NCBI RefSeq assembly: GCF_001633105.1
Contig: NZ_LUKZ01000025.1
Location: 1-64,000, forward strand
DNA length: 64,000 nucleotides
DNA from: Acidovorax sp. GW101-3H11
GTDB taxonomy: Bacteria > Pseudomonadota > Gammaproteobacteria > Burkholderiales > Burkholderiaceae_C
Reading direction: 5' to 3'
This document shows positions 40,639 to 56,570 of the stretch, one piece after another. The notes beneath the pieces are model-generated. The model had not been told where the DNA came from. It made no database searches and was given only the letters and a program-made list of their open reading frames with translations. The number at the start of each line of letters is the position of its first letter. The first letter of the stretch is position 1. The position numbers were made by a program, and so were the translations under genes.

Positions 40639-43600
40639 ATGCAACGTCTTGAAAAAAGACGCGGTGGCTTGCGTGCGCTCGCAGCCATTGCAGGGAGCTG
40701 TTTCGCGGTTGTGGGCGCTGTGGCGGTTGTCACGCCAGCAGCCTTCGCGCAGACCCGTTCACTCGCAGCGCCAGTTCCATCGGGTGCAGCGTCCGCGCCA
40801 ATGCCACCACATCTCCTGTCTGGCTCTGCCCGCTTGAGAAATGTCACACGCAATGGCTCGTTTGAGGTGGTGTATTCCAACACTACGCTTACTGCGTGCC
40901 CTAATGAGGAAAGGCTGAAGTACTTCTTCTATTGGCAGGACTCCCCCGAATTTCGCAGCTCAACTTGGTGTGGTGCGGCACAAGCCAACATTGACTGGTC
41001 CAATGCCACGGATCCCGTCACCTCGCGCATTCCGTACCAACTGGAGCAGTGTGTTGCCGGAAGCTATTGGACATACTCCCACGCGTTTCCCGACGGGACT
41101 CGCTACTACAGTCCAGAGTACGGCGGTATTTCCATGGTCTGCACCAGGGAGCTGGATCCGCCAGAATCCACCCCACCACCGCCTCCAGAGCCGCCATCAC
41201 CTCCGCCGCCCACTCCGCCGAACAATTCCGGGCCTGCGGGTCCATCGAATCCTCCCACGTGCCCAGAAGGTGACTACTCGGGCAACAGCACCCCCAACCC
41301 GATCATTCCTGCAACGGGCGACAAGAACCAACCCTTCAGTGACGTCATCGGACAGGGCCCCCATGCCCTGAACTGGTCGCGCACCTACCGCAGCCTCTAC
41401 GCCAACAGCCGTGCGACCTACGTACTGCCACTGGTGGGCATGGCCCCCGGGTGGGGCCACAACCACAGCGCCAGGCTCAACCCCGCTGGCAGTGCCCTCA
41501 ATTGGAGCGACGGCACCGCACAGACCCTCGTCATGGGCAATGGTGACCTGCAGCGGTTCACCTATTCCGCATCCACCGCCACCTGGCAGAACCAGAACGG
41601 CAGCAAGAGGCTGCAGACCAATGCCAGCGGCTGGCTCTACACCGATCTGGACGCAGACCGCAAACTGCAGTTTTCTGCCACGGGGCTGCTGCAAAGCGTC
41701 ACAGGCCGCAACGGCTGGGTGACCACCTATGGCTATGTGGCGATCAACAGCATTCCCATGCTGAAAACGGTGACCAACCAGTTTGGCCGCAAACTGCAGC
41801 TCAACTACAACACCAAGGGCCAGCTGGTCTCGGTCGCTGCGGGCAGCAAGGTGCAGGTGAGCTACGAATACGACACATCCGATCGTTTGTTGACGGCGCG
41901 CTATGCCGACAACACCACCAACACCTACCTCTACGAGCACCCCAGCTACCCGCACGCCCTGACCGGCATCGTGGACGAAAACAACCAGCGTTTCGCCACC
42001 TACGCCTATGACGACGTGGGCCGGGCCGTCAGCACCGAGCATGCCGGTGCGGTCGAGCGCTACCAGGTCGGCTACCCCGCCAGCAGCGGTGGGGCCACCA
42101 CCATCACCGACCCTCTGGGCACGGTGCGCGCTTTCAACTACAGCGCCAGCCTGGGCCAACTCGCGGTTACCGGCGCAGACAAGCCCGACGGCCTGGGCCT
42201 GCGCGACGCCGCCAGCCGCGTGCAAAGCCCCCTGGGCCTGGTCACCGCAGAAACCGACTTCCTGGGCACCACCACCAGCTACGCCTGGGACACCGCCCGC
42301 CGCCTGCCCACCGCCGTCACCGAAGCCGCAGGCAAACCCGAAGAGCGCACCACCGTCACCAGCTGGCACCCCCAGTGGCGCCTGCCGGTCACTGTGAGTG
42401 AGCCCGGCCGTACCACCAGCTACACCTACGACAGTGCAGGCAACCCCCTCACCCAGACCATCACCGACACCGGTGCTGGCATGGGCAGCGGCATCGCCCG
42501 CACCACCAGCTGGACGTACCACCCCTCGGGCCTGGTCGCTACCGAAACCGCCCCCAATGGCGCGGTCACCAGCTACCAGTACGACAGTGCCGGCAACCTC
42601 ACCAGCACCACCAACGCCCTGGGCCATGTAGACACCTACACCCACGACACCAACGGCCGCGTGCTCACCCACACCGCGCCCACCGGCCTCCTCACCACCT
42701 ACACCTATGACGCCCGGGGCCGCATGCTCACCGCCAACCGGGGTGGGCAGACGACCCGGTTCACCTACCGCCCCTCGGGGCAGGTGGCCACCGTCAGGTT
42801 GCCCTACGGCCACACCATCACCTACACCTACGACACCGCCCAGCGCATGACCGGCTGGAGCGACAACCGCAACAACAGCGGCACCTACACCCTGGACGCC
42901 ATGGGCAACCGCACCCGCGAGGAGGTGCGCAACGCCCAGGGGCAACTGGTGTGGCTGCTGGCACGCAGCATCAACAGCCTGAACCGCGTGGAAAGCACCA
43001 CCGTGGGCGGCCAGCAAACCACCACCCACGGCTTTGACGCCAACGGCGAGACCGTGCGCAGCACCAACGGCGCCAACGAATCCACCCACCTGGGCCTGGA
43101 CGCCCTGCGCCGCGTCAAGACCATCACCAACGCCGCCAACGCCACGGCATCCCTGACCTACAACGCCCTGGATGCCGTCACCCAGGCCAGCGACTTCAAA
43201 GGCGTAGGCACCACCTACGCCCGCGACGCCCTGGGCAACGCCACCGGCGAATCCAGCCCCGACAGCGGCCTGCAAAGCACCCAGTACGACGCCCTGGGCC
43301 TGCCCAGCACCGTGACCGATGCCCTGGGCCAGGCCACCCACATCGACCGCGACCTGCTGGGCCGCCCCACGCTCATCACCCAGCCGGGCGGCGCCACCAC
43401 CACCCTGCGCTACGACCTGGCAGGCCCCGCCTACAACCAGACCGACCAGCCCAACGCCAGCAAGGGCGCCTTGAGCGAAATCGTGGACGCCAGCGGCACC
43501 ACCACCTACCAGCGCGACCACTTCGGCCGCGTCACCGCCAAGACCCAGACCCTGCTCAGCGGCACCGCCCGCAGCGTGGGCTATGCCTACGCCGCCAGCG

Positions 43601-45309
43601 GCCTGCTGGCCAGCACCACCTACCCTGGCGGGCAAGTGCTGCAGCATGTCTACAACAGCACCGGCTTGCTCACCGGCCTGACCTGGGCGGGCCAAAGCCT
43701 GGTGAGCAACATCACCTGGAACCCCCTGGGCCAGCCCACCGGCTGGCGCTGGAACCTGCCCGGCGCCACGGCCGCCATCCCGGCCACCCGCAGCTACAAC
43801 ACCGCAGGCCAGCTCACCGCCACCGAGTTCAGCAGCTACCAGTACAACAGCGCAGGCCGCATCACCAGCCTCACGCAAAACCTGTGGAAGCCCGGCAGCA
43901 CCGACCCGCTGCAAAGCACCCTGGCCCGCGCCGACACCACCTGGACCGTGCAGTACGACACCCTGGGCCGCATCACCCAGATGGGCGACAACGTGCGCAC
44001 CACCACCTACCAGTACGACGCCAACGGCAACCGCACGGCCAGCGTGCAGACCACCACCACGGGCACACCCGCCGCCACCAGCAGCATCAGCCGCGCCTAC
44101 GGCACAGCCGCAGGCCACAACCGGCTGTTGGGCTTTGAGCAAACTGCCGCTGCTGGCGGCAACAGCGCCACCACCAGCGTCAGCTACCAGTACAACGCCG
44201 CAGGCGACTTGCTGGGCGACGGCCTGCGCAGCTACGCCTACGACAGCCAGGGCCGCATGGAAAGCGCCACCACCGGCGAAGGGGCCGACGCCCCCAAAAC
44301 CAAATACGCCCACAACGCCCTGGGCCAGCGCGTGTTCAAGACCGAGCCGCTGTACAGCGCCGCAGGCAAACCCGCCAGCACCAAGAACCTGAACAACCTG
44401 CTGGCCGATGACGGCGACGAAGGCAAGGACACCCAGGGCGAACAACCCGGCCTCATCCAGCAACTGCTCAACTTCTTCTTCAGCAAACTCTGGAGCCCCG
44501 CCACCAGCGATGCCGAGAAGCTGGGCTGGACCTATGTGTACGCAGAAGACGGCAGCCTGCTGGCCGAGTACGGAGAAGGCAGCGCCGCCACCTCAGGCAG
44601 CGCGCAATACCTGTGGCTGCCCACGGCCAATGGCCCCATGCCCATTGCGGCAGTGGTCAACGGCCAGACCTACGCCGTGCACAGCGACCACCTGAACACC
44701 CCCAGAAAACTCACCCAGGCCAATGGGCAGGCGGTGTGGCAGTGGGCGTACAGTGCGTTTGGGGATGAACAGCCGACCACGGCGGCCAAGCGGTTTACGA
44801 GTGAGATGACAAACCCGACGACGGGGGCGACCAGCACCCCCGAAGTCACGTTCAACCTGCGGTATCCGGGGCAATACTTTGATAGGGAGACGGGGCTCCA
44901 TTACAACTACTTCCGGACGTATGCGCCGGGCACGGGAAGGTATACGCAGGCCGACCCGATTGGGTTGGATGGGGGGTGGAATCGGTTTGGGTATGTGGAT
45001 GGAAATCCTCTATCGCATGCTGATCCAGATGGACTTGCGCCTAAATATGAGAAGCCTCCGAATCCAAATAAGAAACCCCCTCCAGTCCATCGTGTTCCAG
45101 ACAATGCTCGAGAGAGAAACGTGGCTCATCCAAATGCGGAAGAACACTCGCGCACAAGCAAAGGACAGCGTGGCAACAGAGGAGCCCGTGGAGCACGCGG
45201 TGTAGGTGGGCTTTTCATTTGGGATTTAATAAACAACGTCTGTGCAGAGAACCCAGGACTGGCGGGTTGCGAGCCCTTAAAGCCACCTGAGCAGCCCTGC
45301 CAAAATTGA
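40639..45309 (+). CDS. RHS/YD-repeat polymorphic toxin, full-length, Sec-exported
   Basis: A 1556-residue protein. ATG at 40639 follows GGGAGAG. Residues 1-37 are a signal peptide (MQRLEKRRGG..., cleavage near AFA-QT), so export is by Sec, and no PAAR or VgrG-like domain is present. A proline-rich linker (~172-196) and the DUF6531-like segment NPIIPATGDKNQPFSDVIGQ follow. Many YD repeats (Y-x-Y-D-x2-G-R/N) build the shell from ~400 to ~1350. The RHS core ends GLHYNYFRTYAPGTGRYTQA, then DPIGL...DPDGL. The variable tip is 90 residues (1467-1556), rich in basic and Gly residues (RTSKGQRGNRGARGARGVGG) with a hydrophobic patch, no recognised toxin family, and lower GC than the core. This is the apparently expressed member of the tip array. 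Confidence 0.93.
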   Translation: MQRLEKRRGGLRALAAIAGSCFAVVGAVAVVTPAAFAQTRSLAAPVPSGAASAPMPPHLLSGSARLRNVTRNGSFEVVYSNTTLTACPNEERLKYFFYWQDSPEFRSSTWCGAAQANIDWSNATDPVTSRIPYQLEQCVAGSYWTYSHAFPDGTRYYSPEYGGISMVCTRELDPPESTPPPPPEPPSPPPPTPPNNSGPAGPSNPPTCPEGDYSGNSTPNPIIPATGDKNQPFSDVIGQGPHALNWSRTYRSLYANSRATYVLPLVGMAPGWGHNHSARLNPAGSALNWSDGTAQTLVMGNGDLQRFTYSASTATWQNQNGSKRLQTNASGWLYTDLDADRKLQFSATGLLQSVTGRNGWVTTYGYVAINSIPMLKTVTNQFGRKLQLNYNTKGQLVSVAAGSKVQVSYEYDTSDRLLTARYADNTTNTYLYEHPSYPHALTGIVDENNQRFATYAYDDVGRAVSTEHAGAVERYQVGYPASSGGATTITDPLGTVRAFNYSASLGQLAVTGADKPDGLGLRDAASRVQSPLGLVTAETDFLGTTTSYAWDTARRLPTAVTEAAGKPEERTTVTSWHPQWRLPVTVSEPGRTTSYTYDSAGNPLTQTITDTGAGMGSGIARTTSWTYHPSGLVATETAPNGAVTSYQYDSAGNLTSTTNALGHVDTYTHDTNGRVLTHTAPTGLLTTYTYDARGRMLTANRGGQTTRFTYRPSGQVATVRLPYGHTITYTYDTAQRMTGWSDNRNNSGTYTLDAMGNRTREEVRNAQGQLVWLLARSINSLNRVESTTVGGQQTTTHGFDANGETVRSTNGANESTHLGLDALRRVKTITNAANATASLTYNALDAVTQASDFKGVGTTYARDALGNATGESSPDSGLQSTQYDALGLPSTVTDALGQATHIDRDLLGRPTLITQPGGATTTLRYDLAGPAYNQTDQPNASKGALSEIVDASGTTTYQRDHFGRVTAKTQTLLSGTARSVGYAYAASGLLASTTYPGGQVLQHVYNSTGLLTGLTWAGQSLVSNITWNPLGQPTGWRWNLPGATAAIPATRSYNTAGQLTATEFSSYQYNSAGRITSLTQNLWKPGSTDPLQSTLARADTTWTVQYDTLGRITQMGDNVRTTTYQYDANGNRTASVQTTTTGTPAATSSISRAYGTAAGHNRLLGFEQTAAAGGNSATTSVSYQYNAAGDLLGDGLRSYAYDSQGRMESATTGEGADAPKTKYAHNALGQRVFKTEPLYSAAGKPASTKNLNNLLADDGDEGKDTQGEQPGLIQQLLNFFFSKLWSPATSDAEKLGWTYVYAEDGSLLAEYGEGSAATSGSAQYLWLPTANGPMPIAAVVNGQTYAVHSDHLNTPRKLTQANGQAVWQWAYSAFGDEQPTTAAKRFTSEMTNPTTGATSTPEVTFNLRYPGQYFDRETGLHYNYFRTYAPGTGRYTQADPIGLDGGWNRFGYVDGNPLSHADPDGLAPKYEKPPNPNKKPPPVHRVPDNARERNVAHPNAEEHSRTSKGQRGNRGARGARGVGGLFIWDLINNVCAENPGLAGCEPLKPPEQPCQN

Positions 45310-45321
45310 TCAAGGGGTGCA

Positions 45322-45840
45322 ATGAGCGTTTCTTTTGAAGATCCATTTTCAGCAATCCATCATTTGATGAAAAGGGAAGAGTTTGCGGAGGCAATCCTCG
45401 CATTAATAGATGCTCGAACTGGACGTATCAATCTGAAGTTCAGGGTGGATATTAACCATGCTTGGTACTGCGTCGCAGACAGCAAATACAAAATAGGAGA
45501 TTTTTCTGGGGCGCTCTCATCATTTAAGAAGGCCTTGAAAGATAATCCCAATGATGTTGAAAGTCTTCTGGCGATTGCCAATTGCTACGATGAGTTGAAG
45601 AAACCAAAATTGGCCGAAAGATTCCTCCGAAAAGCACTTGCACTCAATCCAAAAGGGCGTATCAAAGCCGCAGCTCTAGTAAATCTAGGCAATGCGCTTA
45701 TGGACCAAAATAGATGGACTGATGCTATTGATCACTTTGGCGAACTATGCAAACGAAAAGATGACATCGGGACAATTGCCCGCAAAAACCGGTCCTTGGC
45801 TCTTGATTTAAGAAATCGCCACAAGCGTCTTCAGATCTGA
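45322..45840 (+). CDS. TPR protein in the immunity position of the parent RHS gene
   Basis: A 172-residue cytoplasmic protein starting 13 bases after the RHS stop. It has TPR-like helical pairs: FAEAILALIDARTGRINLKF, YCVADSKYKIGDFSGALSSF and IANCYDELKKPKLAERFLRK, each with the usual spaced A, L and Y residues. TPR proteins often bind partner proteins, so it may bind the RHS tip as immunity. The assignment as immunity comes from position only. GC content is low, like the tips, so it probably moved with the tip. Confidence 0.75.
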   Translation: MSVSFEDPFSAIHHLMKREEFAEAILALIDARTGRINLKFRVDINHAWYCVADSKYKIGDFSGALSSFKKALKDNPNDVESLLAIANCYDELKKPKLAERFLRKALALNPKGRIKAAALVNLGNALMDQNRWTDAIDHFGELCKRKDDIGTIARKNRSLALDLRNRHKRLQI

Positions 45841-45852
45841 AGCTGAGGGCTT

Positions 45853-46020
45853 GGCTCAGGTCTTGCCTTTTATCTAAATCTCGAAACGGAGGATTCAAAC
45901 TGAAGTGCAACCCGCCCCACGCATGCCTGCTTGTAGTTGCCTCAGACTACTAAATTGATAGCTGCCAGCGCATACCCATCAGGCGGAAACGCCCAATTTG
46001 ACTCCAAACCCAGCAAGACC
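45853..46020 (+). repeat. cassette 5' module R1
   Basis: A ~168-bp block: GGCTCAGGTCTTGCCTTTTA, then GGATTCAAACTGAAGTGCAA, then a weak hairpin around CCGCCCCACGCATGCCTGC, then the dispersed repeat in the orientation AAATTGATAGCTGCC...GGAAACGCCCAATTTGAC. The same block precedes all cassettes (R1-R8). Confidence 0.85.
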
Positions 46021-47206
46021 AACTGCCTGCTGGGCTTTGAGCAGCCCGCAGCCGCTGGATGCAACAGCGCCACAGGCAAACCCGCCAGCACCAAGAACCT
46101 GAACAACCTGCTGGCCGATGACGGCGACGACGGAGACAGCGACAAGGCCCCCCAGGGCGAACAGCCCGGCCTTATCCAGCAACTGCTCAACTTCTTCTTC
46201 AGCAAACTCTGGAGCCCCGCCACCAGCGATGCCGAGAAACTGGGCTGGACCTATGTGTACGCAGAAGACGGCAGCCTGCTGGCCGAGTACGGGGAAGGCA
46301 GCGCCGCCACCTCAGGCAGCGCGCAATACCTGTGGCTGCCCACGGCCAATGGCCCCATGCCCATTGCGGCAGTGGTCAACGGCCAGACCTACGCCGTGCA
46401 CAGCGACCACCTGAACACCCCCAGAAAACTCACCCAGGCCAATGCCCATTGCGGCAGTGGTCAACGGCCAGACCTACGCCGTGCACAGCGACCACCTGAA
46501 CACCCCCAGAAAACTCACCCAGGCCAATGGGCAGGCGGTGTGGCAGTGGGCGTACAGTGCGTTTGGGGATGAACAGCCGACCACGGCGGCCAAGCGGTTT
46601 ACGAGTGAGATGACAAACCCGACGACGGGGGCGACCAGCACCCCCGAAGTCACGTTCAACCTGCGGTATCCGGGGCAGTATTTCGACAAGGAGACGAATC
46701 TCCATTACAACTACTTCCGGACGTATGCGCCGGGTACGGGGCGGTATACGCAGGGGGATCCGATTGGGCTGGGTGGGGGATTCAACAGGTTTGCCTATGT
46801 GGAAGGCAACCCTCTCTCGATGACTGATCCGACAGGAGAGATCGCGTTTCTTCCGATCCTGATTGGCATCGGCGCGGGGTACGCTTTTGACTACGCTCTG
46901 GAGCAATACAAGAAAGAGCACTGTACGTGCAAGGAGACACCGGCTGGTCCGGTTGTCAACGCGGCGGCGGGTGGTGCTGTTGGCGGATCCGGTCCGTTTG
47001 CCAGCAAGCCGAGAGGTGGTGTTGCTGGTGGTGGGCCTGCAGGCAGAGCAACTTCATCTTTTAGCCAGATAAACCATGCGGCGGCAAGTAGTGGCCGGTA
47101 CTCTGTTGCTACCCGAAACTGGATTACCAAGGTTCTTCGGAGGTTGCCATATGCTGGTGCCGCCTTGGCGGGCTATGAACTCTACGACGCCTTTACTTGC
47201 GATTAA
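45937..47206 (+). pseudogene. orphan RHS tip cassette 1, frameshifted
   Basis: Reads (from a TTG) KLIAASAYPSGGNAQF, then the RHS core (GKPASTKNLNNLLADD, then KLWSPATSDAEKLGWTYVYA, LPTANGPMPIAAVVNGQTYA). A tandem duplication of 85 bases (46357-46441 and 46442-46526) breaks the frame after LTQAN. The core resumes at 46442 (MPIAAVVNGQTYA). The tip (46841-47203, 121 residues) begins after DPTGE and has hydrophobic and glycine-rich stretches (PILIGIGAGYAFDYA; VNAAAGGAVGGSGPFA) and ends YEL YDAFTCD. No toxin family was recognised. Immunity candidate follows 5 bases later. Confidence 0.85.
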
Positions 47207-47642: not shown

Positions 47643-47806
47643 TGAAATCACTATTTTCAGTTCTCAAACTGCAGTTCTGGATTGGCTTTATTGGCACTTT
47701 GTTACTTTCTCCCGTTTTGTACATCGTAGAGATACTTGGAGGATCCATCCAGCGGTTTGGACCATTCATGAGCGAGCAATGGGGTCAGGTCTTGCCTTTT
47801 GCCTGA
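47643..47806 (+). pseudogene. truncated membrane-protein fragment with RHS-core scar upstream
   Basis: ATG at 47643 opens 54 residues (MKSLFSVLKLQFWIGFIGTL, LLSPVLYIVEILGGS) with one hydrophobic helix, running into the start of module R2. Immediately upstream (47567-47590) the frame reads NWFAYVDG, matching the end of the RHS core (NRFAYVEG in cassette 1, NRFGYVDG in the parent). Then comes one end of the MITE-like element (CAATACTGTTCGGTTA, 47600-47615). The stretch looks like what is left of a further cassette whose tip was deleted. Confidence 0.5.
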
Positions 47807-47949
47807 ATCACCAAACGGAGGATCCAAACTGAAGTGCAACCCGCCCCACGCATGCCTGCTTGTAGTTGCCCCAGACTACTAAATTGATAGCTGCCAGCGC
47901 ATACCCATCAGGCGGAAACGCCCAATTTGACTCAAAACCCAGCAAGGCC
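47782..47949 (+). repeat. cassette 5' module R2
   Basis: Copy of the 168-bp module (GGGTCAGGTCTTGCC... to CCCAGCAAGGCC). Confidence 0.9.
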
Positions 47950-49014
47950 AACCGCCTGCTGGTCTTTGAGCAGCCCGCTGCCGCTGGGTGCAACAGCGCC
48001 GCAGGCAAACCCGCCAGCACCAAGAACCTCAACAACCTGCTGGCCAACGATGGCGACGAAGACAGGGAGCCCCAGGGCGAACAGCCCGGCCTTATCCAGC
48101 AACTGCTCAACTTCTTCTTCAGCAAACTCTGGGGCCCAGCCACCAGCGACGCCGAGAAACTGGGCTGGACCTATGTGTACGCAGAAGACGGCAGCCTGCT
48201 GGCCGAATATGGGGAAGGCAGCGCCACCACGTCAGGCAGCGCGCAATACCTCTGGCTGCCCACGGCCAACGGGCCCATGCCCATTGCGGCAGTGGTCAAC
48301 GGCCAAACCTATGCCGTGCACAGTGACCACCTGAACACCCCCAGAAAACTCACCCAGGCCAATGGGCAGGCGGTGTGGCAGTGGGCGTACAGTGCGTTTG
48401 GGGATGAGCAGCCCACCACGGCGGCCAAGCGGTTTACGAGTGAGATGACAAACCCGACGACGGGCGCGACCAGCACCCCGGATGTCACGTTCAACCTGCG
48501 GTATCCGGGGCAGTACTTTGATAAGGAGACGGGGCTCCATTACAACTACTTCCGGACTTATGCGCCCGGTACGGGAAGGTATACGCAGGGGGATCCGATT
48601 GGGTTGGATGGGGGGTGGAATCGGTTTAGTTATGTGGGGGGGAATCCACTTAGTAAGAGTGATCCACTAGGTCTCACTGAAACATGCAGTGGTACAGATT
48701 GTGCAAATCCCCCATTTGACCCATCTCCAAATGGACCAACTCCCGGTGGTGGACCGAAAACTCCATCTAGTCGGAATGACAACTCGGCTTCAGGCGCGTT
48801 GTGCGAAAGATTTGAAGAGAAGCCCTTCAAGAAATGGATTTGCGAGAAATGTGTATCTGCTGCATGTTCGGCGGGCATTGTTTCCAGTGCTCTTTGCTGC
48901 GGTGAAGCTCACCGGCAATGCGTCATAAGAGAGAAGTCCGAGAGCAGGGATGGGGCAGAATGTGCAGCTCAATTGATGACTTGTAACGCATTCGGTGGGA
49001 GAGGGAGTAAGTAA
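47866..49014 (+). CDS. orphan RHS tip cassette 2, cysteine-rich tip
   Basis: Open from TTG 47866 through the RHS core (LWGPATSDAEKLGWTYVYAE...NRFSYVGGNPLSKSDPLGL) to a 112-residue tip (48676-49011) with eleven cysteines, several in pairs (CEKCVSAACSAGIVSSALCC), and a Pro/Ser/Gly-rich start. Disulphides or metal binding are likely. There is no ATG start or signal peptide, so it is a donor cassette rather than a stand-alone secreted protein. The next gene begins 3 bases after the stop. Confidence 0.85.
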   Translation: MPQTTKLIAASAYPSGGNAQFDSKPSKANRLLVFEQPAAAGCNSAAGKPASTKNLNNLLANDGDEDREPQGEQPGLIQQLLNFFFSKLWGPATSDAEKLGWTYVYAEDGSLLAEYGEGSATTSGSAQYLWLPTANGPMPIAAVVNGQTYAVHSDHLNTPRKLTQANGQAVWQWAYSAFGDEQPTTAAKRFTSEMTNPTTGATSTPDVTFNLRYPGQYFDKETGLHYNYFRTYAPGTGRYTQGDPIGLDGGWNRFSYVGGNPLSKSDPLGLTETCSGTDCANPPFDPSPNGPTPGGGPKTPSSRNDNSASGALCERFEEKPFKKWICEKCVSAACSAGIVSSALCCGEAHRQCVIREKSESRDGAECAAQLMTCNAFGGRGSK

Positions 49015-49017
49015 AAA

Positions 49018-49434
49018 ATGAAGTCGGATCACCAAGCGATTTGGTTCTGTCTTGCCTGCTTTGCAGGATTCATCGGAGTCAATCTAGTTGCTCCGATAGT
49101 TCTTTCTGTGGAGTTGCTTCCAAGTGGATATGCGTATCTTTTGACAAAAAACGTAGCATACGCGGCAATCGTTGGTACTCTGGCCGCATGGTTGCTCAAG
49201 TCCTTTATGCCCTCCAAGGTTTTGATGTGGATTGGTATCGGTAATTTTGTGTTGCCTATGGTTTTTTCTTTGGGGGGGTTGTGGTTGTTCACGGACGCAC
49301 TTTCCCACGTCTCCACTCACACCATAGGTGGTTTTTTTGTCGAAGGAGCTATTTATGGCGCATTTGCAGCCATTTGGTGGACTCTTCTGCGAGTATTTAT
49401 CTTCAGATCAAACGATGAAGAATCGAAAAAATAA
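49018..49434 (+). CDS. four-helix membrane protein, candidate immunity of cassette 2
   Basis: 138 residues with four hydrophobic helices: IWFCLACFAGFIGVNLVAPI, VAYAAIVGTLAAWLLKSF, VLMWIGIGNFVLPMVFSLGG and TIGGFFVEGAIYGAFAAIWW. It starts 3 bases after the cassette 2 stop. A membrane immunity protein suggests that the cognate tip acts at the inner membrane, or in the periplasm. This is inferred from position and topology. Confidence 0.7.
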   Translation: MKSDHQAIWFCLACFAGFIGVNLVAPIVLSVELLPSGYAYLLTKNVAYAAIVGTLAAWLLKSFMPSKVLMWIGIGNFVLPMVFSLGGLWLFTDALSHVSTHTIGGFFVEGAIYGAFAAIWWTLLRVFIFRSNDEESKK

Positions 49435-49449: not shown

Positions 49450-49618
49450 GGGTCAGGTCTTGCCTTTTGCCTAAATCACAGAATGCAGGATTCAAACTGA
49501 AGTGAAACCCGCCCCAGGCATGCCTGCTTGTAGCTGCCTCAGACTACTAAATTGATAGCTGCCAGCGCATGCCCATCAGGCGGAAACGCCCAATTTGGCT
49601 CCAAACCCAGCAAGGCCA
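49450..49618 (+). repeat. cassette 5' module R3
   Basis: Copy of the ~168-bp module before cassette 3. Confidence 0.9.
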
Positions 49619-49744
49619 ACCGCCTGCTGGGCCTTGCGCAGCCCGCAGCCGCTGGATGCAATAGCGCCGCAGGCAAACCCGCCAACACCAAGAACCTGAA
49701 CAACCTGCTGGCCGATGACGGCGATGACGGCAATAAGAGCAACG
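49552..49744 (+). pseudogene. orphan RHS tip cassette 3, tip deleted
   Basis: The RHS core begins as usual (KPSKANRLLGLAQPAAAGCN, KPANTKNLNNLLADDGDDGN) but breaks after about 60 codons and runs straight into module R4 (AACGGGGTCAGGTC). The rest of the core, tip and immunity gene are gone. Confidence 0.85.
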
Positions 49745-49912
49745 GGGTCAGGTCTTGCCTTTTGCCTAAATCACAGAAGGCAGGATTCAAACCGAAGTGA
49801 AATCCACCCCACACATGCCTGCTTGTAGTTGCCCCAGACTACTAAATTGATAGCTGCCAGCGCATACCCATCAGGCGGAAACGCCCAATTTGGCTCTAAA
49901 CCCAGCAAGGCC
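49744..49912 (+). repeat. cassette 5' module R4
   Basis: Copy of the ~168-bp module before cassette 4, directly abutting the broken cassette 3. Confidence 0.9.
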
Positions 49913-51154
49913 AACCGCCTGCTGGGCTTTGAGCAGCCCGCTGCCGCTGGGTGCAACAGCGCCGCAGGCAAACCCGCCAGCACCAAGAACCTGAACAACC
50001 TGCTGGCCGATGATGGCGATGACGGAGACAGCGACAAGGCTCCCCAGGGCGAACAGCCCGGCCTTATCCAGCAACTGCTCAACTTCTTCTTCAGCAAACT
50101 CTGGAGCCCCGCCACCAGCGATGCCGAGAAACTGGGCTGGACCTATGTGTACGCAGAAGACGGCAGCCTGCTGGCCGAATACGGTGAAGGCAGCGCCGCC
50201 ACCTCGGGCAGCGCGCAATACCTGTGGCTGCCCACGGCCAATGGCCCCATGCCCATTGCGGCAGTGGTCAACGGCCAGACCTACGCCGTGCACAGCGACC
50301 ACCTGAACACCCCCAGAAAACTCACCCAGGCCAATGGGCAGGCGGTGTGGCAGTGGCCCACGGCCAATGGCCCCATGCCCATTGCGGCAGTGGTCAACGG
50401 CCAGACCTACGCCGTGCACAGCGACCACCTGAACACCCCCAGAAAACTCACCCAGGCCAATGGGCAGGCGGTGTGGCAGTGGGCGTACAGTGCGTTTGGG
50501 GATGAGCAGCCGACCACGGCGGCCAAGCGGTTTACGAGTGAGATGACTGTCCCGACGACGGGGGCGACCAGCATTCCTGATGTCACATTCAACCTGCGCT
50601 ATCCGGGGCAGTACTTTGATAAGGAGACGGGGCTCCATTACAACTACTTCCGCACGTATGCGCCGGGTACGGGGCGGTATACGCAGGGGGATCCGATTGG
50701 GTTGGATGGGGGGTGGAATCGGTTTGGGTATGTCGGGGGGAATCCGCTGAGCTTCGTGGATCCCTTCGGATTGACTTGGGAGGACGTTATTAAGGCAATG
50801 GCAGCGTTGAGTTGCGATTCTGCAAGATACAACTCAAATGCGAATGTCAGGTTTGGTGACCCGGGCAAGGGAAATTTTGGAGCTACTGATTTTTGGACTG
50901 GCCACATTACGCTCAGCTCTAAGGACTTCGAGGGGGCCCTGACAGATTCGATGCGCCTGCATTTGCTTAGAAATCTGGCCCACGAATATATGCATTCCAA
51001 CCAGAGTCGCCCATCAAGAGCTGCAATGAATCTGGACGACCTCCTCGGTGAGCCACTGGGGTTGCATGATGTATTGGGTCGCAAAGCGTATGACATTCCA
51101 GACAATGTCTGGAATGCATGGAACAACAAGAACACTTGTACTTGTTCAAAGTAG
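49829..51154 (+). CDS. orphan RHS tip cassette 4, HExxH metallopeptidase-like tip
   Basis: Reads through the RHS core with an in-frame 126-bp (42-residue) tandem duplication (50231-50356 and 50357-50482, PTANGPMPIAAVVNGQTYAV repeated). The 126-residue tip (50774-51151) contains L-A-H-E-Y-M-H-S-N-Q at tip residues 68-77; HEYMH (50981-50995) is a HExxH zinc motif, so the tip is a candidate zinc peptidase. A conserved Glu or His as third ligand is not certain (GLHD follows at ~97). The next gene starts 9 bases later. The cassette lacks a start codon and signal peptide. Confidence 0.85.
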   Translation: MPQTTKLIAASAYPSGGNAQFGSKPSKANRLLGFEQPAAAGCNSAAGKPASTKNLNNLLADDGDDGDSDKAPQGEQPGLIQQLLNFFFSKLWSPATSDAEKLGWTYVYAEDGSLLAEYGEGSAATSGSAQYLWLPTANGPMPIAAVVNGQTYAVHSDHLNTPRKLTQANGQAVWQWPTANGPMPIAAVVNGQTYAVHSDHLNTPRKLTQANGQAVWQWAYSAFGDEQPTTAAKRFTSEMTVPTTGATSIPDVTFNLRYPGQYFDKETGLHYNYFRTYAPGTGRYTQGDPIGLDGGWNRFGYVGGNPLSFVDPFGLTWEDVIKAMAALSCDSARYNSNANVRFGDPGKGNFGATDFWTGHITLSSKDFEGALTDSMRLHLLRNLAHEYMHSNQSRPSRAAMNLDDLLGEPLGLHDVLGRKAYDIPDNVWNAWNNKNTCTCSK

Positions 51155-51163: not shown

Positions 51164-51535
51164 GTGACGTTAAATCGCACCTTCTTTGTTTTTCTGCTTG
51201 TAGTTGTCTGTGCGGGCTGGGCAATCTTCACCATGAGGCCAGAGGCATTGCTTATGGCGTTTTTCCTGGTATTGGGCTTTGCACACAAGCATTTCAGACG
51301 CAGCAATCGAGCGGTGATCTCTGCGGCTGCGCTTGTCGCATTGGCACCGTTTTCACCGATCGGGATAACGCTGTCGCACTCTCCGGCTGGGCCGAAGCTC
51401 GTTGAATGCTGTCCGGACAGATTTTTATCCCCTGAACATAATCAGTCTGCTAAAGAATCTGCAAAACGCGGTGAGTGCCATCTGTGTAGCGATGTAGTTA
51501 CTGGGTTTGAGCCGAAGCGTTACATCGTCTGGTAG
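51164..51535 (+). CDS. membrane protein, candidate immunity of cassette 4
   Basis: 123 residues from GTG at 51164 (preceded by AGGATT), with two hydrophobic helices (FFVFLLVVVCAGWAIFTM and ALLMAFFLVLGFAHKHF), a third weaker one near 47-65, and a soluble C-terminal half with four cysteines (LVECCPDRF and ECHLCSD). Placed right after the metallopeptidase-like tip, as expected for immunity, possibly facing the periplasm. Confidence 0.65.
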   Translation: MTLNRTFFVFLLVVVCAGWAIFTMRPEALLMAFFLVLGFAHKHFRRSNRAVISAAALVALAPFSPIGITLSHSPAGPKLVECCPDRFLSPEHNQSAKESAKRGECHLCSDVVTGFEPKRYIVW

Positions 51536-51750: not shown

Positions 51751-51789
51751 CTGCACGAATCCCCAAGCGATGTGATTGGGTCCGTAACG

Positions 51790-51958
51790 GGGTCAGGTCT
51801 TGTCTTTTGCCTAAATCACAGGATGCAGGATTCAAACTGAAGTGAAACCCGCCCCAGGCATGCCTGCTTGTAGCTGCCTCAGACTACTAAATTGATAGCT
51901 GCCAGCGCATACCCATCAGGCGGAAACGCCCAATTTGACTCAAAACCCAGCAAGGCCA
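51790..51958 (+). repeat. cassette 5' module R5
   Basis: Copy of the ~168-bp module before cassette 5. Confidence 0.9.
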
Positions 51959-53049
51959 ACCGCCTGCAGGGCTTTGAGCAGCCCGCAGCCGCTGGATGCA
52001 ACAGCCCCACAGGCAAACCCGCCAGCACCAAGAACCTGAACAACCTGCTGGCCGATGACGGCGATGACGACAAGAACCCCCAGGGCGAACAGCCCGGTCT
52101 CATCCAGCAACTGCTCAACTTCTTCTTCAGCAAACTCTGGAGCCCTGCCACCAGCGATGCCGAGAAGCTGGGCTGGACCTATGTGTACGCAGAAGACGGC
52201 AGCCTGCTGGCCGAGTACGGTGAAGGCAGCGCCGCCACCTCAGGCAGCGCGCAATACCTGTGGCTGCCCACGGCCAATGGCCCCATGCCCATTGCGGCAG
52301 TGCTCAACGGCCAGACCTATGCCGTGCACAGCGACCACCTGAACACCCCCAGAAAACTCACCCAGGCCAATGGACAGGCGGTATGGCAGTGGGCGTACAG
52401 TGCGTTTGGGGATGAGCAGCCGACGACGGCGGCCAAGCGGTTTACGAGTGAGATGACTGTCCCGACTACGGGTGCGACCAGCACCCCAGACGTCACGTTC
52501 AACCTGCGGTATCCGGGGCAGTACTTTGATAAGGAGACGGGGCTCCATTACAACTACTTCCGGACGTATGCGCCGGGTACGGGGCGGTATACGCAGGCTG
52601 ATCCGATTGGGCTGGATGGGGGATTCAACCGATTTAGCTATGTGGGGGGGAATCCGCTGAGTCGCATTGATCCACTTGGTTTGCAAGCGATCATTGTTCC
52701 CAGCCCAGGTAGGCCACCTAGGACAGTTGATCCTAACTTTCCCCCTGGAGTAGGACCCAACCAGCAAAGCGATTCGGCCCTGCAGGAGCTCATTGAGCGC
52801 GAAGCGAACAGGAGAGAGTACAAGAATGCCTGTAACGAGCCACCACCACCTGGGTTGAACTCGTGCGAGCGTGCAAAGTGGGAATTGAAAAAATGGCAGA
52901 GCTGCAAGGACCTCCGCGAGGCGAATACCAATAGATGGTGGGGTGGCCAAGACATGCGACATGATCCTCAAACAATGACGGACATTGATACCAACATTTT
53001 TTATGCTAAGCGAGCGATCAGAAGGATTTGCAAAGAGGAATGCCCTTGA
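51892..53049 (+). CDS. orphan RHS tip cassette 5
   Basis: Reads through the RHS core (without frameshift) to a 121-residue tip from 52684. The tip starts with a proline-rich linker (VPSPGRPPRTVDPNFPPGVG) and then a compact charged domain: REYKNACNEPPPPGLNSCER, AKWELKKWQSCKDLREAN, TNRWWGGQDMRHDPQTMTDI, ending in KRAIRRICKEECP. The pattern PPPPGL-x2-C-x-RAKW-x-L-x4-C-x2-L-R reminds me of one of the Ntox families described for bacterial polymorphic toxins (type 16 as I recall); this is unverified. It has no signal peptide or ATG. The next gene starts 1 base after the stop. Confidence 0.85.
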   Translation: MIAASAYPSGGNAQFDSKPSKANRLQGFEQPAAAGCNSPTGKPASTKNLNNLLADDGDDDKNPQGEQPGLIQQLLNFFFSKLWSPATSDAEKLGWTYVYAEDGSLLAEYGEGSAATSGSAQYLWLPTANGPMPIAAVLNGQTYAVHSDHLNTPRKLTQANGQAVWQWAYSAFGDEQPTTAAKRFTSEMTVPTTGATSTPDVTFNLRYPGQYFDKETGLHYNYFRTYAPGTGRYTQADPIGLDGGFNRFSYVGGNPLSRIDPLGLQAIIVPSPGRPPRTVDPNFPPGVGPNQQSDSALQELIEREANRREYKNACNEPPPPGLNSCERAKWELKKWQSCKDLREANTNRWWGGQDMRHDPQTMTDIDTNIFYAKRAIRRICKEECP

Positions 53050-53050
53050 G

Positions 53051-53533
53051 ATGTGCATCATGCAATTAATAGATCGCATTGACCGCGGCTTCAAGGCTGC
53101 CAACTTTCCTCGGAAAGGTGGTCTCGTCGATGGCTCTCTGTCGCAGCAAGATTGTGGGTTTGAAGTGGCTGCCGATTTAGAGTACTGGCGTGATAGAGAT
53201 CCAGACGAGCGCTTGCTGCGTGAGATGCACCAGGAACTTCGCAAGCTATCTCCAGATGCGACACGATGGATCCTGCCGCACTATCTCCGGTACTCTCTCA
53301 CCGAGAAGGCAAAATACACTCGGATGGAGACTTCATTCTTTGTTCTGAGTCTGGTTTCTCGCAGCGATGGAGATTTTCAACAAATCGCAAAAAGATTATC
53401 TTCAATGAGTGGTGAGCAAATAGAGTGCTTGGCAAAAGTACTTGAGCACTTGAATTCTGAATCGGACTGGTCAGAATATATGGGGGAAAGCATTGAGGCC
53501 GCGCTCGCCACTTTGAAAAGTCTTGAGCGTTGA
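53051..53533 (+). CDS. candidate immunity protein of cassette 5 (DUF6714-like pattern)
   Basis: 160 residues from ATG 53051 (one base after the cassette 5 stop; in-frame ATG at 53060 is the alternative). It is acidic and alpha-helical with no membrane segment. The layout IDRGFKAANFPRKGGLVDGS, a cysteine, EVAADLEYWRDRDP, and then RWILPHYLRYSL recalls DUF6714-type immunity proteins, but I cannot verify this. A soluble partner is consistent with a cytoplasmic toxin target. Confidence 0.65.
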   Translation: MCIMQLIDRIDRGFKAANFPRKGGLVDGSLSQQDCGFEVAADLEYWRDRDPDERLLREMHQELRKLSPDATRWILPHYLRYSLTEKAKYTRMETSFFVLSLVSRSDGDFQQIAKRLSSMSGEQIECLAKVLEHLNSESDWSEYMGESIEAALATLKSLER

Positions 53534-53595
53534 CAGTCAGAAAAATTCTGAATCTCGCACTCCTCTTAGGATGTCCGAGCAATGGGATCAGGTCT

Positions 53596-53688
53596 CAATA
53601 CTGTTCGGTTAGATCCAATTTCCATGAACCGGCAATCCTGTAAGTCATTGATTTATATGGTTGCAGAACCATAAACCGAACAGTATTG
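53596..53688. mobile_element. 93-bp MITE-like element
   Basis: Bounded by perfect 15-bp terminal inverted repeats (CAATACTGTTCGGTT at 53596-53610 and AACCGAACAGTATTG at 53674-53688), with no gene inside. It is flanked on both sides by GATCAGGTCT (53586-53595 and 53689-53698), either a 10-bp target duplication or use of the GGTCAGGTCT at the start of the cassette module as the target. A lone left end also occurs at 47600-47615. Confidence 0.75.
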
Positions 53689-53855
53689 GATCAGGTCTTG
53701 TCTTTTGCCTAGATATCGAAGCAAAGGATTCAAACTGAAGTGAAACCCGCCCCAGGCATGCCTGCTTGTTGCTGCCTCATACTACTAAATTGATAGCTGC
53801 CAGCGCATACCCATCAGGCGGAAACGCCCAATTTGACTCAAAACCCAGCAAGGCC
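53688..53855 (+). repeat. cassette 5' module R6
   Basis: Copy of the ~168-bp module before cassette 6, directly after the MITE-like element. Confidence 0.9.
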
Positions 53856-54878
53856 AACCGCCTGCTGGGCTTTGAGCAGCCCGCAGCCGATGGATGCAAC
53901 AGCGCCACAGGCAAACCCGCCAGTACCAAGAACCTCAACAACCTGCTGGCCGACGATGGCGACGACGACAAGGCCCCCCAGGGCGAACAACCCGGCCTCA
54001 TCCAGCAACTGCTCAACTTCTTCTTCAGCAAACTCTGGAGCCCCGCCACCAGCGACGCCGAGAAGCTGGGCTGGACCTATGTGTACGCAGAAGACGGCAG
54101 CCTGCTGGCCGAATACGGTGAAGGCAGCGCCGCCACCTCAGGCAGCGCGCAGTACCTGTGGCTGCCCACGGCCAACGGGCCCATGCCCATTGCGGCTGTG
54201 GTCAACGGCCAGACGTATGCCGTGCACAGCGACCACCTGAACACCCCCAGAAAACTCACCCAGGCCAATGGGCAGGCCGTGTGGCAGTGGGCGTACAGTG
54301 CGTTTGGGGATGAACAGCCGACCACGGCGGCCAAGCGGTTTACGAGTGAGATGACTAACCCGACGACGGGGGCGACCAGCATTCCTGATGTCACATTCAA
54401 CCTGCGGTATCCGGGGCAGTACTTTGATAAGGAGACGGGGCTCCACTACAACTACTTCCGGACTTATGCGCCGGGTACGGGGCGGTATACGCAGGGGGAT
54501 CCGATTGGGTTGGATGGGGGGTGGAATCGGTTTAACTATGCGGAGGGAGATCCGCTCATTTTTACGGATCCACTCGGTCTTTTCAAAATCCCCCTCATCG
54601 ACGACTTCTATACAGGAAAGACCATTGCCTGCCTCGAATTGGAAAAGGAGCAGTGGGGCAAGTGGCTCCGAGAAGCTCACTCTACGCCTATGGCTGAATT
54701 GAGTCCTAGTCAGTGGTATGTAATGCAAAATGCAACCAGTGAGATGAGTCGAATAATAGTTCAACAGGGCAATTTGATGGGAGCAACTGTTGGAGCGGAA
54801 CCTTTGAAATTGCCTAGAAAACCCATTCCTGCAAAATCTATAGCAATGGGACTAGGCATGACATGCGGGTGCAAGTAA
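53766..54878 (+). CDS. orphan RHS tip cassette 6
   Basis: Reads through the RHS core (NRFNYAEGDPLIFTDPLGL) to a 98-residue tip (54582-54875): FKIPLIDDFYTGKTIACLEL, EKEQWGKWLREAHST, and a lysine/proline-rich end LKLPRKPIPAK followed by a Cys-Gly-Cys terminus. No family was recognised. It has no ATG start or signal peptide. The next gene starts 22 bases after the stop. Confidence 0.85.
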   Translation: MLLPHTTKLIAASAYPSGGNAQFDSKPSKANRLLGFEQPAADGCNSATGKPASTKNLNNLLADDGDDDKAPQGEQPGLIQQLLNFFFSKLWSPATSDAEKLGWTYVYAEDGSLLAEYGEGSAATSGSAQYLWLPTANGPMPIAAVVNGQTYAVHSDHLNTPRKLTQANGQAVWQWAYSAFGDEQPTTAAKRFTSEMTNPTTGATSIPDVTFNLRYPGQYFDKETGLHYNYFRTYAPGTGRYTQGDPIGLDGGWNRFNYAEGDPLIFTDPLGLFKIPLIDDFYTGKTIACLELEKEQWGKWLREAHSTPMAELSPSQWYVMQNATSEMSRIIVQQGNLMGATVGAEPLKLPRKPIPAKSIAMGLGMTCGCK

Positions 54879-54900
54879 GTTGCTCAGAAGGGATGTCTAA

Positions 54901-55470
54901 ATGTCAGATTGGGTTGAGGTACTTATTTGGTGCTTGGGATTTGTTTTGCTGCACGAAGGCATTGCGCGCAGTGTGCAGAGAATTAATGATCGGAAAACAT
55001 TTTCTGCCGTCTCATTGGGTGTGTTGACACTTCTTTCTGGTACTATTTTCTGGTACCAGAGTGCTCGAGGATATGAGCAGCTATACGATACCCAACTGCT
55101 TCATAAATCCGAAAAAGAACTGAAAATCAGAATAGAGAAATTTGAAGAACTTGAACCACCTCAACGTAGCGAAGCAAGTGTCAAATTGGCCAGGCTGGCA
55201 TTTGCAAATGGCGAGGACGATTTAAAAGTTTTTTCTGAAGAGGGTGGGTGGACGCCCTTCAAACCCGACGTGCAAGACTGGAAGGAGCGAGACCTCAGAC
55301 ACAAAATGCTGACAGAGATGAATCAGCGGCGACAAGACTTGCTTTTGGGTTTAGTAACTGCAGAGCGAGATTGGAAAAAGTGGTTTGCTAGTTTGTTGAT
55401 CGGAATCCTGACTGGGCTTATGGGAGGCTACTCCCGTAGAAAGACCATCGACATATTTAGGATCCGATAG
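54901..55470 (+). CDS. membrane protein, candidate immunity of cassette 6
   Basis: 189 residues with two N-terminal helices (VEVLIWCLGFVLLHEGIA and TFSAVSLGVLTLLSGTIFWY), a ~90-residue soluble charged loop (KSEKELKIRIEKFEELEPP) and a C-terminal helix (WFASLLIGILTGLMGGYS). It lies 22 bases after cassette 6. A membrane location is consistent with the other membrane-type candidates in the array. By position it is the immunity gene. Confidence 0.7.
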   Translation: MSDWVEVLIWCLGFVLLHEGIARSVQRINDRKTFSAVSLGVLTLLSGTIFWYQSARGYEQLYDTQLLHKSEKELKIRIEKFEELEPPQRSEASVKLARLAFANGEDDLKVFSEEGGWTPFKPDVQDWKERDLRHKMLTEMNQRRQDLLLGLVTAERDWKKWFASLLIGILTGLMGGYSRRKTIDIFRIR

Positions 55471-55505
55471 TGGATCGGCAGCCGAGCCAGCCCTGAGTGG
55501 TGATG

Positions 55506-55675
55506 GGTTCATGGCTTGCCTTTTGCCTAAATCACAAAAAATGCAGGATTCAAGCTGAAATGTGACCCGCCCCACATATGTCGGCTTGTAGCTATTGAGT
55601 AGTCCTAAATTGATAGCTATCAGAGCTTGTCCATCAGGCGGAAACGCCCAATTTGGCTCCAAACCCAGCAAGACC
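55506..55675 (+). repeat. cassette 5' module R7
   Basis: A more diverged copy (GGTTCATGGCTTGCCTTTTG, and CACATATGTCGGCTTGTAG at the weak hairpin). Confidence 0.85.
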
Positions 55676-55975
55676 AACGGCCTGCTGGGCCTTGCGCAAC
55701 CCGCAGCCGCTGGATGCAACAGCGCCGCAGGCAAACCCGCCAGCACCAAGAACCTGAACAACCTGCTGGCCGATGACGGCGATGACGGAGACAGCGACAA
55801 GGCCTCCCAGGGCGAACAGCCCGGCCTTATCCAGCAATTGCTCAACTTCTTCTTCAGCAAACTCTGGAGCCCCGCCACCAGCGATGCCGAGAAGCTGGGC
55901 TGGACCTTCAGGCATTCGAGGCGCTGCTCAACCCGCGCTGCACTGCGAGGCCTTGGCACGCGCATTGAGCCGTGA
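55595..55975 (+). pseudogene. orphan RHS tip cassette 7, truncated
   Basis: RHS core begins as in the others (GKPASTKNLNNLLADDGDDG, KLWSPATSDAEKLGWT) and breaks off after LGWT, joining the unrelated sequence of the downstream small-gene region (CAACCCGCGCTGCAC). No tip or immunity gene is left. Confidence 0.85.
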
Positions 55976-55995
55976 CACAACAGGGTGTACCGGCC

Positions 55996-56199
55996 TCAGC
56001 CGTTCGCTGTAGCCGTGGTTTGTTCAAACACAAACCCCAGAGCGCGGATCTCGTCCTCGCTCATGTGCACCTCTATCAGCTCTGGCTGTCTCGCTTCGAC
56101 TGCGCGGCGGCGCTCATAGTTGGTGGGAGGGCCATTGTCGATCTGGCGGCGATCTTTGCCGCTGCGCCGCTCCGCGCCTCTTCTGTGTTCGACGGTCAT
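55996..56199 (-). CDS. small arginine-rich protein, 67 aa
   Basis: ATG at 56199 gives MTVEHRRGAERRSGKDRRQI, then NGPPTNYERRRAVEARQPEL and IEVHMSEDEIRALGFVFE. The pattern of repeated RR followed by a compact acidic helical end (MSEDE-x2-ALGF) I recall in short hypothetical proteins of Comamonadaceae, function unknown. It is on the opposite strand at the right edge of the array. A truncated duplicate lies at 51595-51750. Confidence 0.65.
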   Translation of the reverse strand: MTVEHRRGAERRSGKDRRQIDNGPPTNYERRRAVEARQPELIEVHMSEDEIRALGFVFEQTTATANG

Positions 56200-56423
56200 G
56201 CTGCTGGTGGGTTGATTGGGATGAATGTTTGGATGTGTTTTGGAGACTCCCCTTTGCGCCATTTGGCTGAACCCCATGCAACGCGTTGTCGCTTTTTGAC
56301 TGCCTGCAAAGGATCGGGAAGTGCGATTTGAAAGATACCGCTGCCCAACACCTGTGAGAAGGAGGCATGACATTTGTTGACGATCCGCGCCGCCGGAACA
56401 TGTCAAAGATGTGAAGGTAGCGG

Positions 56424-56570
56424 TCGCATCCCGAAGCGGAGGATGCAAGCTGAAGTGCAGCCCGCCCCGCATGTGCGGGCTTTCAGCTGTCCAAGACTTC
56501 AAAATTGATAGCTATCAGCGCTTATCCATAGCGCGGAAACGCCCAATTTGGCTCCAAACCCAGCAAGGCC
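56424..56570 (+). repeat. terminal module R8, no cassette behind it
   Basis: The last copy (GGAGGATGCAAGCTGAAGTG... to CCCAGCAAGGCC). It keeps the best hairpin AGCCCGC...GCGGGCT (56459-56481) followed by TTT, and the most perfect dispersed repeat (AAATTGATAGCTATCAGCGC). It looks like the ancestral unit; there is no RHS core after it. The rest of 56200-56656 holds nothing else that I can support. Confidence 0.8.

What the first reader, a model, noticed from the sequence alone, without database searches (positions are those of the whole stretch)
40639..56570. Array of silent RHS tip cassettes behind an expressed Sec-exported RHS toxin
The parent RHS protein (1556 aa) is followed by at least six partial or complete copies of its C-terminal core. 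Each complete copy switches, right after the D-P-x-G-L core end, to a different AT-richer tip and is followed by a small, unrelated gene. Cassettes lack a signal peptide and a credible start codon (only TTG), so recombination into the parent at the ~660-bp core is the likely use. Orphan rhs-CT/immunity pairs are known in RHS and CDI systems; an array of this size with a Sec-type (not PAAR-type) parent and no T6SS genes nearby is less usual. Tips include a HExxH candidate peptidase, an 11-cysteine tip, and others without known family.
Basis: partly seen in the sequence, partly recalled or inferred. Interest (0 to 1): 0.9.

Follow-up and report, generated by a model that had tools for sequence, protein, structure and literature searches.

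The report
Swappable toxin tips in matching frames
In a bacterium of the Acidovorax group, the gene for a large, predicted secreted toxin is followed by five further, mutually unrelated tips, each with a likely antidote gene and all set between the same two stretches of DNA, a layout that would let the cell exchange its toxin tip by recombination; two related species keep the same frame but hold different tips.

Summary
The array is real. An RHS gene (40639-45309) with a predicted Sec signal is followed by five tip-bearing core copies, one truncated copy and one stub. Every tip, the parent's included, is followed by a small gene, then a ~215-bp leader: core on the left of each pair, leader on the right. 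Eight of eight complete cassettes in three species share one 64-codon core deletion, so they are copies of one frame. Two related Acidovorax with the same flanking genes share none of the six tips; one small gene survives in one of them, elsewhere in the array. Core copies are mosaic: two parents share a significant tract with their own first cassette. Cassette cores have dN/dS like parents'. The genome lacks a T6SS sheath gene. New here: a 21-base motif at the frame's start also flanks a RAYT transposase; all 11 copies in this genome lie in its two RHS arrays. In the wider family RAYT relatives are mostly not at RHS loci, so hitchhiking is likelier than a dedicated role. Orphan rhs tips, longer arrays and recombination onto the parent are known; this is a variant. 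No swap was observed directly.

The parts
40639..45309 (+). parent RHS gene, 1556 aa: signal-peptide-like N-terminus, DUF6531, RHS repeats, Rhs-associated core, tip
40639..40749 (+). predicted Sec signal peptide, ending A-F-A
   Evidence: hydrophobic stretch at residues 13-31, score 2.4; inferred
40867..41151 (+). N-terminal domain with conserved cysteines, shared with some other signal-bearing RHS parents
44356..45024 (+). parent core: left homology arm
45025..45309 (+). parent tip (begins P-D-G-L)
45322..45840 (+). small gene behind the parent tip (TPR protein), likely immunity
45853..46063 (+). leader 1: right homology arm behind the parent pair, start of cassette 1; motif with 3 mismatches
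46066..46828 (+). cassette 1 core, with 85-bp tandem duplication (46354-46444 / 46439-46529) that shifts the frame
46829..47206 (+). tip 1
   Evidence: relative with its small gene in L080
47212..47568 (+). small gene 1, likely immunity (possible start also at 47197)
47779..47992 (+). leader 2, with exact 21-base motif at 47783-47803
47995..48663 (+). cassette 2 core
48664..49014 (+). tip 2 (11 cysteines)
49018..49434 (+). small gene 2, three predicted membrane stretches, likely immunity
49450..49733 (+). extra leader with core stub; exact motif at 49451
49744..49955 (+). leader 3; exact motif at 49746
49958..50761 (+). cassette 3 core, with 126-bp in-frame tandem duplication
50762..51154 (+). 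tip 3 (H-E-Y-M-H, HExxH)
51164..51535 (+). small gene 3 (two predicted membrane stretches), likely immunity; 88.6% relative without its tip in L041
51590..51742 (+). copy of a piece of the array-end region 55924-56075
51789..52000 (+). leader 4; motif with 1 mismatch
52003..52671 (+). cassette 4 core
52672..53049 (+). tip 4; relative on a long RHS frame in Acidovorax sp. Leaf78 (L056)
53051..53533 (+). small gene 4 (DUF6714 match below cut-off), likely immunity
53685..53898 (+). leader 5; motif with 2 mismatches
53901..54569 (+). cassette 5 core
54570..54878 (+). tip 5
54901..55470 (+). small gene 5 (one predicted membrane stretch), likely immunity
55503..55930 (+). leader 6 with truncated core, no tip; motif with 3 mismatches
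55996..56502 (-). small gene at the array end, same place in L041 and L042
56428..56581 (+). last, partial leader copy, without motif or core

Best explanation
This is an array of likely spare C-terminal tips for a predicted secreted RHS toxin, each paired with a likely immunity gene and set between two shared DNA stretches, so that homologous recombination would move a tip/immunity pair onto the parent. Left arm: the ~670-bp core ending at D-P-x-G-L. Right arm: the ~215-bp leader behind each small gene. Shown: the frame, the shared deletion, mosaic tracts between parent and own cassette, different tips under the same flanks in three species. Inferred: that exchange is RecA-type gene conversion or double crossover; that two arms allow one pair to be replaced without losing those between; that pairs also arrive from other cells through the same arms; that cassettes are not translated; that tips are toxins and small genes their immunities. 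The RAYT-linked motif at the frame's left edge most likely rides along.
For: Frame: leader, whole or partial, behind 11 of 11 tip/small-gene pairs in the window (6), NB1 (3) and MAG_42 (2) arrays. Same 64-codon deletion in 8 of 8 complete cassettes there (size). Mosaic: of 55 pairs on the contiguous 3' core, window parent vs own c1 0 of 20,000 shuffles (corrected 0.0027); of 36 pairs on the full core without c1 and c3, MAG_42 parent vs own c1 0 of 20,000 (0.0018); leader 1 of window vs NB1 0.0165 over 55 pairs. Turnover: flanks 92-93% and 98% identical; none of six tips matched in L041 or L042 at E 0.001, one of six small genes in L041. dN/dS medians: cassette-cassette 0.17-0.18 (15 and 28 pairs), parent-parent 0.18-0.21 (3 pairs). 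Start signals: 0 of 37 in-frame ATG/GTG with Shine-Dalgarno-like motif; promoter scan 2 found, 6.0 expected. Pairs travel together: tip1+small gene 88/85% in L080, tip4+small gene 70/68% in L056, on cores 56% (partial) and 62% alike. Parent-orphan shared tips elsewhere: L045/L103 66%, L060/L076 51%, L115/L098 43%, L043/L044 31%. Precedent: orphan tip fused to main rhs in passaged Salmonella, with 522 bp at 95% shared (PMC3967940 passages).
Against: No swap seen within one species; species differ by many events. None of the window's tips sits on the orthologous parent in L041 or L042. The tip-4 relative in L056 is on a long RHS frame that meets an assembly gap, so 'parent' is not proven there. 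Low dN/dS also fits tips recently displaced from working parents. Of the pairs printed with corrected p under 0.05 (seven on the 3' core, three on the full core; only the seven best per test were printed), only two join a parent with its own cassette; the rest are between cassettes or between species, and three runs fall on one patch (columns 266-320 of the 3' core) that may simply be conserved. Shuffling controls this only in part. The two-arm idea rests on layout and one leader tract. Tips 3 and 4 had no strong match beyond the own copy in 250 family genomes.
Confidence: 0.72

Rival explanations
1. The array is mainly a bank of immunity genes and a graveyard of displaced tips: new pairs enter at the parent, old ones are pushed downstream and kept only while their immunity gene pays.
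For: Every pair keeps its small gene, five of six with a Shine-Dalgarno-like upstream stretch by eye; NB1 keeps small gene 3 without its tip; c1 is frameshifted and one copy truncated.
Against: Five of five tips are still open frames; cassettes share one frame with leader and the same 64-codon deletion, which independently displaced 3' ends would not; two parents exchange core tracts with their own cassettes.
Confidence: 0.33
2. Cassettes are expressed on their own as intracellular toxin-antitoxin pairs, as proposed for Salmonella RHS elements.
For: In-frame ATG/GTG codons exist in the core; PMC7043789 (title and start of abstract) describes such a role for Salmonella RHS elements; low dN/dS.
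Against: 0 of 37 start codons with Shine-Dalgarno-like motif; fewer promoter-like sites than shuffles; c1 core frameshifted.
Confidence: 0.1
3. RAYT transposition, not homologous recombination, makes and moves the cassettes; the motif marks their ends.
For: The shared unit starts at the motif; all 11 copies in this genome (two mismatches allowed) lie in RHS arrays, control 0; in 47 genomes 24 of 34 copies (one mismatch allowed) within 3 kb of a core, zones that make up 0.23% of the 16 motif-bearing genomes; close RAYT in 4 of 47 genomes, 4 of 4 beside a core.
Against: In the window all motif copies point one way, so cassettes have no inverted pair; two of eight leaders have three mismatches and one lacks the motif; in the family, of 17 RAYT relatives outside the own genome 1 has a clear and 2 a weak RHS match nearby; of 30 motif loci fetched from a capped list 5 had an RHS match, four of these from Acidovorax; one family genome holds 66 exact copies.
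Confidence: 0.08
4. The array is an assembly artefact of repeats.
For: Draft assembly of 38 contigs, repeats at 91-96% to the parent.
Against: Copies differ, tips are all distinct, and two other assemblies show the same layout between the same flanks.
Confidence: 0.02

Closest known systems
Orphan rhs-CT/rhsI modules behind main rhs genes (Poole 2011 PMC3150448, passages and Discussion; Koskiniemi 2014 PMC3967940, passages)
   Same: core homology up to D-P-x-G-L, variable tip, small immunity gene behind, no start signals, recombination onto the main gene
   Different: parent has a predicted Sec signal in a genome without T6SS sheath gene; each pair also has a shared leader behind it; all complete cassettes share one frame with the same core deletion
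MafB/mafB-CT silent cassettes of Neisseria (PMC4287609, passages)
   Same: Sec-signal parent, array of tip cassettes, in one class without start codon, each with immunity gene, recombination inferred from strain comparison
   Different: DUF1020 parent without repeats; no leader or RAYT motif mentioned in the passages I saw
CDI cdiA-CT/cdiI orphan arrays (PMC3150448, passages and Discussion)
   Same: arrays of up to eleven orphan pairs, module exchange between strains
   Different: two-partner secretion, VENN boundary
REP sequences and RAYT (Y1) transposases (papers seen only in the listing)
   Same: a short motif flanks a Y1/RAYT gene in inverted orientation (L009, L045) and recurs elsewhere
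   Different: motif does not fold as a palindrome; in Acidovorax it is concentrated at RHS cassette starts
H-rpt element of E. coli Rhs loci (recalled; seen only as a term in a search listing)
   Same: transposase-type element resident in rhs loci (recalled)
   Different: different transposase family; not at each cassette start (recalled)

Membership tests
RHS polymorphic toxin with orphan tip array | RHS repeats and Rhs-associated core in the parent | tested here: met
   PF05593 1.5e-66, TIGR03696 4.4e-22
RHS polymorphic toxin with orphan tip array | tips unrelated to one another after a conserved boundary motif | tested here: met
   no match among the six tips at E 0.01; boundary deviates in c1
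RHS polymorphic toxin with orphan tip array | tip is toxic and small gene protects | not testable with these tools
   needs expression; the tip parts matched no Pfam, NCBIfam or PADLOC family
T6SS-delivered PAAR-Rhs | T6SS present in the genome | tested here: not met
   VipB PF05943 0 of 1, control positive in E. coli; VgrG and PAAR not searched genome-wide
Sec-exported RHS toxin | N-terminal signal peptide | tested here: inconclusive
   hydrophobic segment and A-F-A site by simple rule; no dedicated predictor at hand
Tip cassette reservoir used by recombination | exchange tracts between parent and cassettes | tested here: met
Tip cassette reservoir used by recombination | same tip on the parent in one isolate and silent in another of the same species | not tested
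   one genome per species held
REP element | palindromic fold | tested here: not met
   three motif folds, z +0.20 to +0.59
RAYT transposase | Y1 transposase domain | tested here: met
   PF01797 4.7e-11 over its cut-off; NCBIfam REP_Tyr_transpos 71.9 bits, below its cut-off of 80

The most novel reading that the evidence does not exclude
In Acidovorax, a RAYT nuclease has been recruited to RHS arrays: it nicks at the motif that opens each leader, and the break starts gene conversion that carries one tip/immunity pair onto the parent, making tip exchange a programmed, two-armed switch that spares the other pairs.
Probability: 0.07. Interest if true: 0.85.

Novelty: new variant of a known kind. 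Interest (0 to 1): 0.52.

Why it matters
Poole 2011 named two weak points of tip exchange by recombination: the old immunity gene is lost and modules in between are deleted; duplication of the locus was offered as a way out (Discussion read). A second shared arm behind every pair is another possible way out, at least for the modules in between, and it can be tested by mapping junctions. The array also gives a case with a predicted Sec signal and no T6SS sheath gene, with relatives' arrays between the same flanks, so tip turnover can be followed at one address.

Tried and rejected
RAYT as dedicated switch: strong in the genus but the family control went against it; kept only as novel case. Motif as REP: not palindromic. 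Tip 3 structure: AlphaFold2 on a two-row alignment, mean pLDDT 36.1, not used further; no solved-structure relative at E up to 1. Rfam: no match over 40000-57500. PADLOC: none for ten proteins. Tip 3 among cassette-length proteins: only the window's own, 73 candidates. Parent relatives by N-terminal region: four at E 1e-20, none matching a window tip or small gene at E 0.01; two of the four are partial and lack the tip. Motif presence against array size: 10 of 28 loci with two or more core ends, 5 of 73 with one, Fisher 0.0007, not used because kinship and contig length confound it.

Papers: searches. None of the 20 papers listed (of 113) held all four of RAYT, REP, rhs, transposase, and the listing puts papers with more terms first. 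The three papers listed (of four) with rhs, 'repetitive extragenic palindromic' and toxin look unrelated by title. This library lacks most subscription journals.

Full report
What is there. The window (contig C24 of a 5.44-Mb, 38-contig genome) is from Acidovorax or very near it: the closest named core relatives are Acidovorax sp. NB1 (L041, 96%) and an Acidovorax MAG (MAG_42, L042, 94%). The parent RHS gene runs 40639-45309 with DUF6531, twelve RHS-repeat stretches and the Rhs-associated core. Its N-terminus has a hydrophobic segment and an A-F-A site, a predicted Sec signal. The genome has no T6SS sheath gene (VipB/TssC, 0 of 1; control positive in E. coli); VgrG and PAAR were not searched genome-wide.

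The frame. Self-comparison shows that the repeat unit is more than the core. It opens with a ~215-bp leader that ends in a ~54-bp piece of core, then skips 64 codons of the parent, then runs on as ~670 bp of core up to D-P-x-G-L. Leaders lie at 45853, 47779, 49450, 49744, 51789, 53685, 55503 and, as a partial copy, 56428. Because a leader also follows the parent's pair and the last pair, every tip/small-gene pair has core before it and leader, whole or partial, behind it: 6 of 6 in the window, 3 of 3 in NB1, 2 of 2 in MAG_42. The 64-codon gap is in 8 of 8 complete cassettes of these three arrays. Fragments displaced one by one from parents would not be expected to share it.

The same address in other species. 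NB1 and MAG_42 carry the same left gene (92%, 93% protein identity) and right gene (98%, 98%) around their arrays. None of the window's six tips matches either array at E 0.001; of its six small genes one does, small gene 3 at 88.6% in NB1. It sits there in another position, between the array-end gene and the right flank, without a tip. In the window a 153-bp piece of the array-end region lies behind small gene 3 (51590-51742 vs 55924-56075), so this module may have come from the array end (inferred).

Recombination. Core copies of this locus from three species mix in one clade of 11 (95/85) and stand apart from the cores of the second locus in the same genome: 87-94% against 76-84%. I tested for mosaic tracts by shuffling polymorphic sites (20,000 shuffles, contiguous pieces only; truncated copies and the stub left out). 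On the 3' core (11 copies, 55 pairs) window parent and own cassette 1 share a run of 32 sites, never reached (corrected 0.0027). On the full core (9 copies, 36 pairs; c1 and c3 left out) MAG_42 parent and own cassette 1 share 28 sites, never reached (0.0018). NB1's parent shows no such tract with its own cassettes among the pairs printed. Other printed pairs under 0.05 are between cassettes or between species, and three runs lie on one patch that may be conserved. Leaders (11 copies; the window's 56428, two NB1 and one MAG_42 copies left out) give one pair at 0.0165, the two leaders behind the parents of window and NB1. Cassette cores have dN/dS medians 0.17-0.18 against 0.18-0.21 for the three parent pairs: they spend most of their history in working genes, or are read themselves.

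Tips as travelling pairs. Tip 1 and its small gene recur at 88% and 85% in L080 behind a core 56% alike over the part held; tip 4 and its small gene at 70% and 68% in Acidovorax sp. Leaf78 (L056) on a long RHS frame with core 62% alike. Across 154 core ends, not cleared of species present twice (64 parent-like, 62 orphan, 28 uncertain), four cases put one tip family on a parent-like frame in one locus and on an orphan in another at E 1e-6; matches to uncertain ends (for example 81%, 71%, 66%) are not counted. Two of the window's tips sought in 250 family genomes gave only the own copy and one weak hit: the pool looks very diverse.

Silence. 37 in-frame ATG/GTG codons precede the five tips; none has a Shine-Dalgarno-like motif, while stretches of that kind precede five of six small genes by eye. 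Promoter-like sites, both strands, parent included, are fewer than in shuffles (2 against 6.0, sd 2.4). This is sequence evidence only.

The RAYT motif. The leader starts with GGTCAGGTCTTGCCTTTTGCC: exact in three of eight leaders, one mismatch in one, two in one, three in two, absent in the partial one. With up to two mismatches the genome has 11 copies, all in its two RHS arrays; the reversed control has none. In 47 genomes of the genus there are 34 copies with up to one mismatch; 24 lie within 3 kb of a core (exact ones 19 of 21, one-mismatch ones 5 of 13), in zones that make up 0.23% of the 16 motif-bearing genomes; copies in one array are not independent. Ten lie elsewhere, three of them beside an efflux gene (L146). 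In 101 non-redundant loci, 15 hold 30 copies (two mismatches allowed): 24 point with the rhs gene 257-958 bp behind a tip end, five point against it and lie downstream of a RAYT gene, one has no tip before it. Close RAYT relatives (87% or more) are in 4 of 47 genomes, each beside a core. But in 399 family genomes the 17 further RAYT relatives are mostly elsewhere: one clear RHS neighbour, two weak; of 30 motif loci fetched from a capped list five had an RHS match, four of these from Acidovorax; one genome has 66 exact motif copies. So this is a general family element that in Acidovorax is concentrated in RHS arrays; hitchhiking with the leader is the simplest reading.

What is known. Poole 2011 (passages and Discussion) gives orphan modules without start signals, 'silent cassettes' in rhs loci, arrays of eleven, and functional orphan immunity. 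Koskiniemi 2014 (passages) gives evidence for recombination of main and orphan rhs in passaged Salmonella. The MafB paper (passages) has a Sec-signal parent with silent cassettes. Zhang 2012 (passages) lists RHS among the repeats of Sec/T2SS toxins. What I did not find in what I saw is a shared second arm behind each pair or a RAYT motif at cassette starts; I saw passages, not whole papers.

Verdict. A well-supported reservoir of tips that most likely moves by homologous recombination, in a frame with two shared arms: new variant of a known kind.

Noticed in passing
L009 (contig C9:766000-785500): Second RHS locus with a different signal-like N-terminus, two further core ends, a RAYT gene flanked by inverted motif copies, and another HExxH-bearing tip.
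   Followed up: partly
40867-41151: Unnamed N-terminal domain with conserved cysteines, found in 4 of 63 long RHS frames of my loci and in four database proteins.
   Followed up: partly
47880-47970: Second half of the leader folds far better than shuffles as single-stranded DNA (z -3.84), with hairpins; could be a terminator or barrier.
   Followed up: no
leader positions 97-172 (of 47779-47992): The part with AAATTGATAGCTGCCAGCGC recurs at many places over the genome, an interspersed repeat independent of RHS.
   Followed up: no
55996-56502 (-): Small conserved gene marks the array end in all three species; function unknown.
   Followed up: no
L146 (G042:C65): The motif in several copies, both orientations, beside an RND-type efflux gene (name by eye).
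   Followed up: no
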